Shown one piece after another: positions 6,063-17,220 of a DNA stretch of 35,377 nt (position 1 is its first letter; every line of letters begins with the position of its first letter). The notes beneath the pieces are model-generated. The model made no database searches. It was not told the DNA's origin and saw nothing but the letters and a program-made list of their open reading frames with translations. Origin of the DNA: Serratia sp. DD3 (lineage in GTDB: Bacteria; Pseudomonadota; Gammaproteobacteria; Enterobacterales; Enterobacteriaceae); assembly GCF_000496755.2 (NCBI RefSeq), contig NZ_AYKS02000006.1, positions 1-35,377 on the forward strand, written 5' to 3'. Made by a program: the position numbers and the translations under genes.

Positions 6063-7250
6063 TTAGACAAAATCTGCGGCAAAATCTAACCCAACATAGT
6101 TTTCAGCAATCGTCGTTTGACCTGCTTGTGACCGCATCAGGTATTCCAACTCAGCCACCTGAATTTTCTGCTCAATCGGGTCATCGGAGAATTTGTGCAT
6201 CACAGAGGTAAACCACCATGAGAAGCGCACCGCTGCCCAAATACGACGCAGCGCCGTTTCGGAGTAACGATCAAGCAGATCCTGACGCCCCGCCTCATAC
6301 CAAGCGATCAACGCAGTTGACAGATAGTGCACATCGGAGGCCGCCAAATTCAATCCTTTAGCCCCAGTTGGCGGCACAATGTGCCCAGCATCACCCACCA
6401 GGAACAAAGAGCCAAAGCGCAAAGGTTCAACCACAAAGCTACGCAACGGTGCAATACTTTTTTCGAATGACGGCCCAGTGACCAGTGTGCTGGCATAAGG
6501 TTCTGGCAGGCGAAGGCGCAACTCATGCCAAAATGCGTCATCTGACCACGCTTCCACCTGATCAGTCAGCGGAACTTGCAGATAATAGCGGCTGCGGGTA
6601 TGAGAACGCATGGAGCACAATGCAAAGCCACGCGGGTGATTGACATAAATTAACTCTTCATGGACTGGCGGAGTCTCTGCCAGCAGCCCCAGCCAGCCAA
6701 AAGGATAAACGCGTTCATACTCCCGCAAACGATCCTTCGGTACCGCGGCACGTGATGCGCCATGGTAGCCATCACAACCGGCGATATAGTCGCAGTGCAA
6801 TACCTGCGGTTCACCGTTGGCGATGAAACTGATGGTGGGTTTATTGTCAAAAAAGCCTGTCGGCAACACATCCCGCGCTTCAAAAATGACTTGGATGTTA
6901 TCGTCCTGCAATACCTTATCGTACAAATCTTTAGTCAATTCAGTCTGACCATAGACCATGACCTTTTTTCCACCACTCAAACCCGCGAGATCGATCCGTT
7001 TGATCTGATGATCAAACACCAGGCTGAAACCCTCATGGAGCAAGCCTTCCTTGTCCATTCGACCCCCAACTCCTGCATGGCGAATGAGATCTATCATACC
7101 TTGCTCAAGTATCCCGGCGCGCACGCGCGCTTCGACATAGTCGCGCGTCTGTCTTTCCAATACCACACTCTTGATACCTTTCTGGCTCAGTAACAGTGCC
7201 AGACACAACCCTGAAGGTCCTGCGCCAATAATAGCGATTTGTGTTTTCAT
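6063..7250 (-). CDS. pobA: 4-hydroxybenzoate 3-monooxygenase PobA
   Basis: PobA is an FAD-dependent, NAD(P)H-using cytosolic enzyme that converts 4-hydroxybenzoate to protocatechuate. The 395-residue protein closely matches Pseudomonas PobA (394 residues). It has the FAD motif GAGPSG (9-14), the DG motif CDGYHGASR (159-167), the [16 protein letters not shown] motif and substrate-pocket residues equivalent to Tyr201, Ser212, Arg214 and Tyr222. ERQTRDY (32-38) contains the Arg33, Gln34 and Tyr38 associated with NADPH preference. A GTG directly precedes the ATG at 7250. I use the ATG because GGAG lies six bases upstream of it. pobA is the last gene of the catabolic operon, separated from ligC by 177 bases holding a palindromic repeat, so it may have its own promoter. 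Confidence 0.96.
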
Positions 7251-7283
7251 CACGTTCTCCTCAAGCCGTTATACAACCCACGG

Positions 7284-7398
7284 GTATACCTGTGATACTT
7301 CAAGGGGCAGTGGTGTTGGCTACGCCTAAATACTCGGCTCTTCCTGAGCCTCCCCCCTAATGGGGCCACAGCAATCAACCCGAATCATTTTGGATATA
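7284..7398. repeat. Yersinia/Serratia-type palindromic intergenic repeat, copy 2 (inside the catabolic operon)
   Basis: The left end GTATACCTGTGATACTTCAA and the right end, which reads TATATCCAAAATGATTCGGG on the opposite strand, are those of the same intergenic palindromic element as at 4915-5042, with the GTTGGCT segment also present. The middle is shortened or altered, giving about 115 bases. It fills most of the ligC-pobA gap, where the encoded RNA would form a long imperfect hairpin. Recognition is by eye and memory. Confidence 0.6.
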
Positions 7399-7427
7399 GA
7401 CGAGATATTTATCAGAAAATCAACCTG

Positions 7428-8387
7428 TTACTTACCCTGCAATTGCTGTTCAAGTTCATGTAATACTCGATAGCAATCGAGCACTTGCGCCACACTGCCA
7501 TTGGGCTCACGCCCTTCTCGGATCGCGGCAAAAAATTCGCGATCCTGCAATTCGATGCCATTCATCGAGACATCAACATCAGAAACGTCGATTTTTTCTT
7601 CTTTACCGCTGTACAAATCATCGTAACGGGCAAGGTAAGTGCCACTATCACCGATATAGCGGAAGAAGGTGCCGAGCGGGCCATCATTATTGAATGAGAG
7701 AGACAAGGTGCAGATGGCACCATTTTCAGCCTTAAGTTGAATTGACATGTCCATGGCAATCCCTAAAGCAGCCGAGATCGGCCCTTGAATGGCATTGGCT
7801 TTGACGATACGTGAGCGGGTCTGGTAGGCAAACAGATCAACGGTATGCGCGGCATGGTGCCAAAGAAGATGGTCTGTCCAACTACGGGGCTGCCCCAACG
7901 CGTTCATATTGGTACGTCGGAAAAAATAGGTCTGAACATCCATTTGCTGGAGGTTGAACTCGCCAGCAACGGTTCGGCGATAAATCCACTGATGGCTGGG
8001 ATTAAAACGCCGAGTGTGCCCCACCATGGCGACTTTGCCGGTCACCTGTTGTGCGGCCAGAACCGCTTGGGCGTCTGCCCAGCAATCCGCTAAAGGAATT
8101 TCGGTCTGAACGTGTTTGCCTGCCTGCATACAGGCTATCGCCTGAGAGGCATGCAATTGGGTGGGAGTGGCCAGGATCACCGCATCGACCTCTGGCAGGG
8201 CCAGTGTGTCCGCCAACTGGGTAGTGACATGGGGGATACCATATTGTTCGGCCACGGCATTGGCAGCATCAAGACGTGCGCCAATCAGTGACACCACTTC
8301 CACATCAGGAATCGCTTTAATCGCCTCCAGGTGTTTAATGCCGAAGGCACCTGGCCCGGCGAGGGCGACCTTAAGTGTGTTGCTCAT
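7428..8387 (-). CDS. ligC: 4-carboxy-2-hydroxymuconate-6-semialdehyde dehydrogenase LigC
   Basis: LigC oxidises the hemiacetal form of the protocatechuate 4,5-cleavage product to 2-pyrone-4,6-dicarboxylate with NAD(P)+. The 319-residue protein belongs to the Gfo/Idh/MocA family. It has an N-terminal Rossmann fold with GPGAFGIKH (about 11-19), an [11 protein letters not shown] segment where the family's EKP-like motif sits, and a C-terminal alpha/beta domain with [13 protein letters not shown]. Its start overlaps the ligB stop by four bases, and ligA, ligB and ligC form one tight block. Family membership is clear; the specific substrate is inferred from the neighbours and overall resemblance to LigC/PmdC. 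Confidence 0.93.
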
Positions 8388-16122: not shown

Positions 16123-16150
16123 ATTATTCAGTGTGTAAACAACTTGTAAA
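16123..16150 (-). promoter_or_regulatory. Candidate promoter of the galD-pobA operon
   Basis: On the minus strand, -35 TTTACA (16145-16150) and -10 AATAAT (16123-16128) are separated by 16 bases; each is one base off consensus. The predicted start would be near 16116, about 107 bases before the galD ATG. Overlapping alternatives exist, so this is a candidate only. Confidence 0.45.
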
Positions 16151-16175
16151 ATAGGCATTTCAAACTATTAGATAT

Positions 16176-16191
16176 GCTATTTTGAGATAGC
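16176..16191. promoter_or_regulatory. Candidate LysR-family operator
   Basis: A perfect inverted repeat GCTAT-N6-ATAGC lies between galD and the divergent lysR gene. Its centre is about 67 bases upstream of the predicted operon start, where LysR-type recognition sites usually sit. A second palindrome, TGCAATTGCA (16223-16232), lies nearer the regulator gene. Confidence 0.5.
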
Positions 16192-16275
16192 GTGACCGAG
16201 AGCACAGCAAACGACATCGTCATGCAATTGCAGGAAAAGTGCGGCCAGTGCTAGAGTGACAAAAGGAGCATCAGT

Positions 16276-17220
16276 ATGGATCTGAAACAAATCGAGTATT
16301 TCGTCCATGTTGCCGAGTTAGGCAGCTTTACCAAAGCCGCCGTCATGCTGGACATTGCCCAGTCCGCCATCAGCCGCCAGATCCGCCAACTCGAAGTTGA
16401 ACTGCAACAGTCTTTGTTACTGCGCAATGGGCGTGGTGTCACCATGACCGAAGCAGGGAAAGCCTTGCTGGAACATGGGCTAGGGATACTTCACCAGGTC
16501 GAACGTACCCGCGAGATCGTTAGCAAAGCTAAAGGAGCGCTATCTGGGCACGTTGTTGTCGGCCTACCGCCAAGCCTGTCACGCCTGCTGACGGTTCCGT
16601 TAACACGGGCGTTCCACCAGAAAATGCCACATGCTTCACTGGCTATTTGTGAAGGGTTGTCGATCAATATGCAGGAATCACTGCGTAATGGCCGTATGGA
16701 TATCGCTCTGTTATACACCCCCACACCGACCACCGAAATCGACATCATTCCGATCAGCAATGAGCCGCTCTATTTGATCGAACGCGCCACGTCTACTCAA
16801 TCGGATGATGTCGTATCGCTTACGGCACTGGCAGATAAACCGCTGGTGATCCCTTCCAAGCCACATTCCATTCGGATGCTGGTTGAATCGGCACTGGCAG
16901 AGCAAGGCTACCACCCGAATATCGCACTGGAAATCGACAGCGTCCCAGCCATTCTGGAACTAGTCTGTGATGGTCTAGGTTGCGCGGTATTATCACAAAT
17001 GGCATTGGTACGCTTTGAAAAAGCAGAGCTGCTGCATATGCGGCAGATTGGCTCTCCCCCCCTCACAACCCGACTGGCGCTTGCCACCAGTGCCCGCCGA
17101 GCCATGACGCTCACTCAACATGCCATGCTTGATCTGATCCAAACACTGATGCAACGTGTGACTTGCCAGCACGACATTGAGGGAAACCCCGCACTAAACG
17201 GGGCAATTAGCGTCCGTTAA
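16276..17220 (+). CDS. LysR-family transcriptional regulator of the protocatechuate operon
   Basis: The 314-residue protein has an N-terminal winged helix-turn-helix (MDLKQIEYFVHVAELGSFTKAAVMLDIAQSAISRQI region, residues 1-60 or so) and a C-terminal periplasmic-binding-protein-like effector domain (about 90-295). It is divergently transcribed from galD with a 266-base shared intergenic region, the classic LysR arrangement. By position it should control the whole galD-pobA operon in response to a pathway aromatic acid. Sequence alone does not tell whether it is closest to LigR, PmdR or GalR, or which acid it binds. The start follows AGGAG eight bases upstream of the ATG. Confidence 0.92.
   Translation: MDLKQIEYFVHVAELGSFTKAAVMLDIAQSAISRQIRQLEVELQQSLLLRNGRGVTMTEAGKALLEHGLGILHQVERTREIVSKAKGALSGHVVVGLPPSLSRLLTVPLTRAFHQKMPHASLAICEGLSINMQESLRNGRMDIALLYTPTPTTEIDIIPISNEPLYLIERATSTQSDDVVSLTALADKPLVIPSKPHSIRMLVESALAEQGYHPNIALEIDSVPAILELVCDGLGCAVLSQMALVRFEKAELLHMRQIGSPPLTTRLALATSARRAMTLTQHAMLDLIQTLMQRVTCQHDIEGNPALNGAISVR

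What the first reader, a model, noticed from the sequence alone, without database searches (positions are those of the whole stretch)
6063..17220. Complete 4-hydroxybenzoate/protocatechuate 4,5-cleavage pathway in an enteric chromosome
Ten co-directional genes plus a LysR regulator encode every step from 4-hydroxybenzoate to pyruvate and oxaloacetate by meta-cleavage, with catalytic residues intact in PobA, LigB, LigJ and LigK. Enteric bacteria that use protocatechuate are mostly known for the 3,4-cleavage beta-ketoadipate route; this route is best known in Sphingobium, Comamonas and Pseudomonas-type soil bacteria. The single operon combines Sphingobium-type LigJ with Pseudomonas-type GalD. 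The island interrupts the usual bamD-raiA neighbourhood and looks richer in G+C than its flanks.
Basis: partly seen in the sequence, partly recalled or inferred. Interest (0 to 1): 0.75.

Follow-up and report, generated by a model that had tools for sequence, protein, structure and literature searches.

The report
Acquired 4-hydroxybenzoate pathway in a Serratia relative
A Serratia-like bacterium carries, at a chromosome spot where the relatives examined have only a few hundred bases, an 11-kilobase gene block predicted to feed 4-hydroxybenzoate through a well-known ring-opening pathway and likely acquired from Vogesella- or Azoarcus-type bacteria; the pathway is familiar, the host is the unusual part.

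Summary
Ten minus-strand genes (6063-16009) and a divergent LysR gene (16276-17220) lie between bamD and raiA, all open. They encode PobA, LigAB, LigC, a PDC hydrolase, an oxalomesaconate tautomerase, LigJ, LigK, a PcaK-like transporter and an unassigned NAD-binding DUF1932 protein.

bamD and raiA are 272-351 bp apart in 20 of 20 relatives examined; here 11.8 kb. In an evenly drawn sample of the enteric family, LigB-type proteins occur in 29 of 392 genomes, all at 42-46% identity in 421-457-residue frames of gallate-dioxygenase type; no LigAB-type was found. Protocatechuate 3,4-dioxygenase occurs in 41 of 392. The block is therefore rare there and very probably acquired. Outside the family, 9 of 394 order genomes have separate LigA and LigB relatives, two of them close.

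A concatenated tree joins the block to Aeromonas cavernicola, then Vogesella; single-gene trees partly disagree. A group II intron 3' end and a truncated GyrI-like frame mark the edges.

Verdict: a known operon type in an unusual host. Activity is untested; mis-assembly is not excluded.

The parts
6063..7250 (-). pobA, 4-hydroxybenzoate 3-monooxygenase
   Evidence: TIGR02360 615.7 bits, cut-off 538.7; solved PobA relatives 533.8 bits; ATG at 7250
7428..8387 (-). ligC/pmdC, CHMS dehydrogenase
   Evidence: PmdC structure 9azo, 571 bits over residues 1-317; PF19858 and GFO_IDH_MocA
8384..9241 (-). ligB, protocatechuate 4,5-dioxygenase catalytic subunit
   Evidence: NF009903 558.9 bits, cut-off 317; LigB structure 1b4u 398.9 bits with His/Glu motifs aligned
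9241..9639 (-). ligA, protocatechuate 4,5-dioxygenase small subunit
   Evidence: TIGR02792 218.4 bits, cut-off 108.6
9641..10555 (-). ligI/pmdD, 2-pyrone-4,6-dicarboxylate hydrolase
   Evidence: 4d8l 359 bits; PF04909
10545..11501 (-). unassigned DUF1932/NAD_binding_2 protein, beta-hydroxyacid dehydrogenase-like
   Evidence: PF09130 and PF03446; 4ezb 175.8 bits; between ligK and ligI in 25 of 70 loci; conserved K181 and D39
11521..12213 (-). ligK-type 4-carboxy-4-hydroxy-2-oxoadipate aldolase
   Evidence: TIGR02798 410.3 bits, cut-off 304.5; 3noj 264 bits
12253..13278 (-). ligJ, 4-oxalomesaconate hydratase
   Evidence: 2gwg 639 bits full length; 6dxq 505.6 bits
13350..14747 (-). pcaK/pmdK-like aromatic acid transporter
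   Evidence: NF053517 512 bits, below its cut-off of 770; TIGR00895 416.8, just below 418.55
14924..16009 (-). 4-oxalomesaconate tautomerase/isomerase (galD/ligU type)
   Evidence: NF033377 521.6 bits, cut-off 440; (4E)-oxalomesaconate Delta-isomerase structure 6p3j 376.6 bits
16276..17220 (+). LysR-type regulator, divergent
   Evidence: HTH_1 and LysR_substrate; none of the 25 NCBIfam matches shown reaches its cut-off
16010..16275 (.). divergent promoter region with a 7-bp inverted repeat at 16148 and 16177 (22-bp spacer), possible regulator site
   Evidence: one promoter-like match at 16150-16123 on the minus strand, though the region as a whole has fewer matches than its shuffles
5850..5946 (-). 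relic of a group II intron 3' end at the left edge
   Evidence: 82.5% identity over 97 bp to E. coli intron ends beside ltrA; Rfam Intron_gpII 20.7 bits, below the gathering score of 40
17270..17422 (-). truncated GyrI-like C-terminal reading frame at the right edge
   Evidence: PF06445 28.7 bits, cut-off 26, profile positions 112-152 of 155
5848..17475 (.). inserted segment: homology to the empty site of G297 ends near 5847 and resumes near 17476
   Evidence: 119 bp of L135 lie between the two matches

Best explanation
The segment between bamD and raiA encodes a complete lig/pmd-type 4,5-cleavage gene set plus PobA, predicted to convert 4-hydroxybenzoate to pyruvate and oxaloacetate, and it was likely acquired horizontally from a Vogesella/Azoarcus-like source. 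Predicted steps: the PcaK/PmdK-like protein imports 4-hydroxybenzoate. PobA hydroxylates it to protocatechuate. LigAB opens the ring between carbons 4 and 5. LigC oxidises the semialdehyde to 2-pyrone-4,6-dicarboxylate, and the LigI-type hydrolase opens that to oxalomesaconate. The GalD/LigU-type isomerase and LigJ turn oxalomesaconate into 4-carboxy-4-hydroxy-2-oxoadipate, which LigK cleaves. The divergent LysR protein probably senses a pathway compound. The DUF1932 protein is probably an NAD-dependent beta-hydroxyacid dehydrogenase acting beside the core route. Shown: intact genes, family matches, gene order, the empty site in relatives, and rarity in the family sample. Inferred: activity, regulation, substrate, donor and mode of entry.
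For: Family and structure matches for each step. All 11 genes free of internal stops. bamD-raiA gap 272-351 bp in 20 of 20 relatives. No LigAB-type in the family sample: 29 of 392 genomes match, all in gallate-type frames. Also 0 of 7 in the nearest genus, and 5 of 30 in the next genus, all gallate type at 44-45%. Same nine-gene order in Vogesella indigofera L003, and nearly the same block in Aeromonas cavernicola L058. Concatenated LigJ-K-I-A-B-C tree: window with L058 (99), then with Vogesella (99); same two groups with all 64 complete loci. PobA groups with a Neisseriaceae sequence (0.999), not with enteric PobA at 46-49%. Higher G+C. The pmd pathway is needed for growth on 4-hydroxybenzoate in Comamonas testosteroni KF-1 (PMC10154247, passages).
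Against: No activity, transcript or growth data. Single-gene trees do not all agree: LigA, LigB and PcaK pair with other loci, LigC pairs with L004 and L080, and GalD and DUF1932 have support under 0.35, so one donor for the whole block is not shown. Seven further genomes of the wider order carry distant LigA+LigB pairs (42-49% LigB), so the trait is not unique in the order. Codon-use differences are small; PobA, LigC and LysR do not stand out. The transporter is below its NCBIfam cut-off. No integrase or transposase was identified. The window's own genome is not held, so the junctions rest on one assembly.
Confidence: 0.82

Rival explanations
1. The block is a mosaic: the lig core, pobA, the DUF1932 gene and the transporter/regulator came from different sources and were put together before or after arrival.
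For: Single-gene trees place LigA, LigB, LigC and PcaK with different loci. DUF1932 has no match in the fetched stretches of A. cavernicola (L058) and Vogesella oryzae (L040), but is present in V. indigofera L003. G+C varies from 0.504 to 0.564 within the block, though without a clean division between its ends and its core.
Against: The concatenated core gives a stable group with L058 and Vogesella. The same nine-gene order exists as a unit in L003. Short genes give weakly supported trees.
Confidence: 0.25
2. The window joins two organisms by mis-assembly, and the operon belongs to an unrelated bacterium.
For: No whole genome is held for the window. The two other LigB clusters at 99-100% are each on a single contig from one source. 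No named enteric with this block appeared in the searches made.
Against: LigB at 99% and PobA at 100% also occur on other contigs, the longest being 12,389 bp in both searches. Island G+C of 0.539 is far below the Vogesella loci at 0.65-0.67 and nearer the flanks at 0.489. The left edge carries intron debris of a kind common in E. coli.
Confidence: 0.08
3. The pathway is ancestral to the enteric family and was lost almost everywhere.
For: Gallate-dioxygenase-type relatives and LigK-like aldolases are present in part of the family: 29 of 392 and 28 of 295. Distant LigA+LigB pairs exist in 7 further genomes of the wider order sample.
Against: The family's LigB relatives are 42-46% identical and in longer reading frames, and its LigK relatives reach 62% at most. 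The window's tautomerase and six core Lig proteins reach 76-87% with the mostly betaproteobacterial loci. 20 of 20 relatives have a short spacer at the site.
Confidence: 0.03
4. The dioxygenase works mainly on another catechol, such as gallate or a methylated gallate, and PobA is a bystander.
For: LigB-type enzymes are reported to take part in 3-O-methylgallate degradation as well (PMC2856684, passages).
Against: LigB passes the class III beta-subunit model NF009903 and LigA passes the protocatechuate 4,5-dioxygenase alpha model, while the gallate dioxygenase model is missed (310.6 of 412 bits). PobA, LigC and the PDC hydrolase stand in the same block and fit protocatechuate.
Confidence: 0.06

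Closest known systems
pmd (protocatechuate 4,5-cleavage) operon of Comamonas
   Same: Same set of enzymes; LigC is closest to PmdC (9azo); a pmd deletion in C. testosteroni KF-1 abolishes growth on 4-hydroxybenzoate (PMC10154247, passages)
   Different: Here pobA is at the end of the block, a DUF1932 gene sits between ligK and ligI, and the host is an enteric chromosome; the gene order of Comamonas pmd was not compared by call
lig genes of Sphingobium SYK-6
   Same: LigAB, LigI, LigJ and LigU-type solved structures match (that these come from SYK-6 is recalled)
   Different: Sequence is closer to betaproteobacterial loci; arrangement of SYK-6 genes was not tested
Vogesella indigofera locus L003
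   Same: Identical order tautomerase-PcaK-LigJ-LigK-DUF1932-LigI-LigA-LigB-LigC with 63-84% identities
   Different: LysR on the same strand as the operon, no PobA match in the fetched stretch; locus G+C 0.672
Aeromonas cavernicola locus L058
   Same: Divergent LysR, tautomerase, PcaK, LigJ, LigK, LigI, LigA, LigB, LigC and PobA in the same order; sister in the concatenated tree
   Different: No DUF1932 match in the fetched stretch; 50-83% identity
Gallate-dioxygenase-type genes of enterics
   Same: Distant LigB relatives in 29 of 392 family genomes, and LigK-like aldolases in 28 of 295
   Different: 42-46% identity, single long frame, no separate LigA match

Membership tests
Protocatechuate 4,5-cleavage (lig/pmd) operon | Two-subunit LigAB dioxygenase above curated cut-offs | tested here: met
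   LigA 218.4 vs 108.6 bits, LigB 558.9 vs 317
Protocatechuate 4,5-cleavage (lig/pmd) operon | CHMS dehydrogenase and PDC hydrolase | tested here: met
   PmdC 571 bits; PDC hydrolase 359 bits; no NCBIfam cut-off passed by either
Protocatechuate 4,5-cleavage (lig/pmd) operon | Tautomerase, LigJ hydratase and LigK aldolase | tested here: met
   LigJ rests on solved relatives, it has no NCBIfam match
Protocatechuate 4,5-cleavage (lig/pmd) operon | Catalytic residues of LigB and the tautomerase retained | tested here: met
   His18, His65, His199, Glu246 of the 291-aa frame align with LigB (roles recalled); tautomerase Lys60 aligns with the position that differs in solved variant 6p3h
Protocatechuate 4,5-cleavage (lig/pmd) operon | 4,5-dioxygenase activity and growth on 4-hydroxybenzoate | not testable with these tools
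   needs bench work
PcaK/PmdK 4-hydroxybenzoate transporter | Curated NCBIfam cut-off | tested here: not met
   NF053517 512 of 770 bits; TIGR00895 416.8 of 418.55. Described as PcaK-like only
Protocatechuate LysR regulator of the PmdR kind | Named equivalog or clade with a tested regulator | tested here: inconclusive
   no NCBIfam cut-off reached among the 25 of 55 matches shown; related LysR genes next to lig loci; PmdR is recalled
Beta-hydroxyacid dehydrogenase (DUF1932 protein) | Rossmann glycine motif, catalytic lysine, family fold | tested here: inconclusive
   G15, G17, G20, D39, K181 conserved in at least 95% of 36 sequences; solved relatives 4ezb and 3qsg; role of the lysine recalled, substrate unknown
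Genomic island moved by an integrase | Integrase, attachment repeats or tRNA site | tested here: inconclusive
   none of the identified genes is an integrase; the other ORFs of the interval were not scanned. Of 44 direct-repeat families, 20 were shown; one weak pair spans the block (5721-5742 and 17501-17522, 77%), both copies in sequence outside the insert. tRNAs only at 34905-35376

The most novel reading that the evidence does not exclude
A Serratia-related lineage has gained the whole protocatechuate 4,5-cleavage route as one chromosomal block from a Neisseriales/Rhodocyclales-type source, by a path shared with Aeromonas, and the DUF1932 dehydrogenase that travels inside many such operons is an unrecognised extra enzyme of the pathway.
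Probability: 0.25. Interest if true: 0.55.

Novelty: new member of a known kind. Interest (0 to 1): 0.38.

Why it matters
It would add the protocatechuate 4,5-cleavage route to a family where the samples show the 3,4-dioxygenase (41 of 392) or gallate-type genes (29 of 392) and no LigAB, and give an enteric version of a pathway whose intermediate 2-pyrone-4,6-dicarboxylate is wanted as a polymer building block (abstract start of PMC10233912, listing). It also points to a conserved, unassigned dehydrogenase gene inside many of these operons. The pathway chemistry itself is not new.

Tried and rejected
LigJ/GalD hybrid as a novelty: rejected, 22 of 80 loci have both. Native enteric pobA recruited by the island: rejected, enteric PobA is 46-49% identical while the nearest listed sequences are 86% (unnamed) and 75-76% (Rhodocyclales, Neisseriaceae and unnamed). 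Integrase- or tRNA-borne island: no evidence found, but not all ORFs were scanned. Promoter scan: 4 promoter-like sites against a mean of 10.4 in shuffles, so not informative. Literature: among the titles and abstract starts listed I saw none that reports LigAB-type cleavage in an enteric, and one search returned nothing; most listed papers were not opened. I read passages only of PMC3777014 (states that Enterobacter lignolyticus SCF1 lacks the S. paucimobilis-type pathway), PMC12628601, PMC10154247, PMC6592069, PMC2856684 and PMC8312274. Function of DUF1932: no useful paper in the listings. Structure prediction and fold search were not used.

The bamD-raiA comparison used 20 of the 27 genomes that passed the TyrA threshold. 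The single-gene PobA tree used 15 of the 120 listed proteins, 5 of the 14 enteric PobA loci and the fetched lig loci with PobA; the IQ-TREE run used 30 of the 65 rows available, FastTree all 65.
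Full report
What is there. Ten minus-strand genes run from 16009 down to 6063, with a LysR gene on the plus strand at 16276-17220. In transcription order they are: an oxalomesaconate tautomerase, a PcaK-like transporter, LigJ, LigK, a DUF1932/NAD-binding protein, a 2-pyrone-4,6-dicarboxylate hydrolase, LigA, LigB, LigC and PobA. All eleven genes have clean starts and stops and no internal stop. 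NCBIfam cut-offs are passed by PobA, LigA, LigB, LigK and the tautomerase. LigC is full-length similar to solved PmdC (571 bits), the hydrolase to solved PDC hydrolase (359 bits), and LigJ to solved oxalomesaconate hydratase (639 bits). The transporter falls below its cut-off, and none of the NCBIfam matches shown for LysR reaches its cut-off. Eight genes therefore cover every chemical step from 4-hydroxybenzoate to pyruvate and oxaloacetate, one gene is a likely importer and one is unassigned.

Residues. Alignment to solved LigB keeps the histidine and glutamate motifs; their roles are recalled. The tautomerase keeps the lysine that differs in solved variant 6p3h.

Host and site. The flanking genes clpB, rluD, bamD, raiA, pheA, tyrA and aroF follow the E. 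coli order. The window is thus an enteric chromosome near Serratia, but the species is not identified and its genome is not held. In the 20 relatives fetched (20 of the 27 that passed the TyrA threshold), the bamD-raiA gap is 272-351 bp; here it is 11,822 bp. Homology to the empty site of G297 stops near 5847 and resumes near 17476; 119 bp of that site lie between, including a hairpin that looks like a terminator after bamD.

Edges. The left edge (5850-5946) matches the 3' end of group II introns of E. coli at 82.5%, beside ltrA genes. The Rfam intron model sees it only below threshold (20.7 against 40 bits). The right edge carries the last part of a GyrI-like domain without the rest of a gene (17270-17422). 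These look like debris of earlier events. No integrase or transposase is among the identified genes; one weak direct-repeat pair (77% over 22 nt) spans the block, but both copies lie outside the insert. The mode of entry is unknown.

Rarity. In an evenly drawn family sample LigB-type proteins were found in 29 of 392 genomes, all at 42-46% identity and in 421-457-residue frames (one with an internal stop), as in gallate dioxygenases. The nearest genus gave 0 of 7 and the next 5 of 30, again gallate type. The wider order sample gave 14 of 394. Of these, Aeromonas cavernicola (79%) and G313 (71%) are close; seven more (42-49% LigB in 284-296-residue frames) have a separate LigA relative beside LigB, six of these seven with a PDC-hydrolase relative at 60-64%; the other five have long, gallate-type frames. 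So the query finds such genes where they exist, and 4,5-cleavage clusters do occur in the wider order, but none was seen in the enteric family sample. Protocatechuate 3,4-dioxygenase occurs in 41 of 392 genomes over its cut-off. LigK-like aldolases occur in 28 of 295 at 54-62%, so the lower part of this chemistry is not foreign to enterics. Among 5.8 billion proteins, LigB has two further clusters at 99-100%, one at 88%, and then 86% and below (only 8000 candidates scored, 120 listed).

Origin. Vogesella indigofera L003 has the identical nine-gene order including DUF1932, with LysR on the same strand and no PobA match in the stretch; Aeromonas cavernicola L058 has the divergent LysR and the same order with PobA last, but no DUF1932 match. 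A concatenated tree of LigJ, K, I, A, B, C joins the window to L058, and both to two Vogesella loci, with Azoarcus-type loci near: FastTree on all 64 complete loci plus the window 0.999 and 1.0, IQ-TREE on 30 rows 99 and 99. Roots are midpoints. Single-gene trees are weaker: LigJ gives the same four-locus group (0.898), LigK and LigI pair with L058 (0.919 and 0.601); LigA, LigB and PcaK pair with other loci; LigC pairs with L004 and L080 (0.955); LysR falls with L003 and L025 (0.927); GalD and DUF1932 are unresolved. PobA joins an 86% unnamed sequence and then a Neisseriaceae sequence (0.999), far from enteric PobA at 46-49%. Coding G+C is 0.539 against 0.489 in the flanks, and 0.56-0.68 in the loci of A. 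cavernicola, Vogesella and Azoarcus type. Codon use differs only slightly; nine of eleven island genes lean to the island reference, one of them by only 0.001, and one of 16 flanking ORFs leans that way too. I take this as acquisition long enough ago for partial adjustment, with a single donor likely but not shown.

LigJ with a GalD-type tautomerase is found together in 22 of 80 loci, so it is a common layout, not a new combination.

DUF1932. It lies between LigK and the hydrolase gene in 25 of the 70 loci that have both, and somewhere in the fetched stretch in 38 of 70. Among 36 sequences the glycine motif, D39 and K181 are conserved, and the closest solved proteins are uncharacterised or 6-phosphogluconate-dehydrogenase-like. 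I predict an NAD-dependent beta-hydroxyacid dehydrogenase beside the core route; its absence from many loci argues against an essential step.

Function. In Comamonas testosteroni KF-1 deletion of the pmd genes abolishes growth on 4-hydroxybenzoate (PMC10154247, passages). By homology the window's block should do the same job; nothing here measures it. Judgement: a known operon kind in an unusual host, with one overlooked gene worth testing.

Noticed in passing
34905-35376: Three tRNA-Arg(acg) genes in tandem on the minus strand, with the same Rfam match and score.
   Followed up: no
2996-3134, 18131-18256, 31708-31780: Rfam matches to the sRNA Ysr155/RyfD, the pheA leader and the sRNA MicA, as expected for an enteric chromosome.
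   Followed up: no
22484-24843: A C4-dicarboxylate transporter gene and a DUF481 gene follow aroF, where the E. coli record has yfiL.
   Followed up: no
L084: A genome of the wider order (G107) has a partial LigC relative at 82% identity beside a LigB relative of only 48% on the other strand.
   Followed up: no
L085, L086, L091-L094: Six order genomes carry a distant LigA+LigB pair (42-45% LigB) with a much closer PDC-hydrolase relative (60-64%), a second branch of 4,5-cleavage clusters.
   Followed up: partly
L167 and L168 (G398, G400): The pobA matches in two genomes of the nearest genus are reported with one TAA inside the frame.
   Followed up: no
L002, L014, L017, L019, L028, L038, L041, L063, L066, L073: In these loci the DUF1932 relative lies on the far side of the LysR gene and not inside the operon.
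   Followed up: partly
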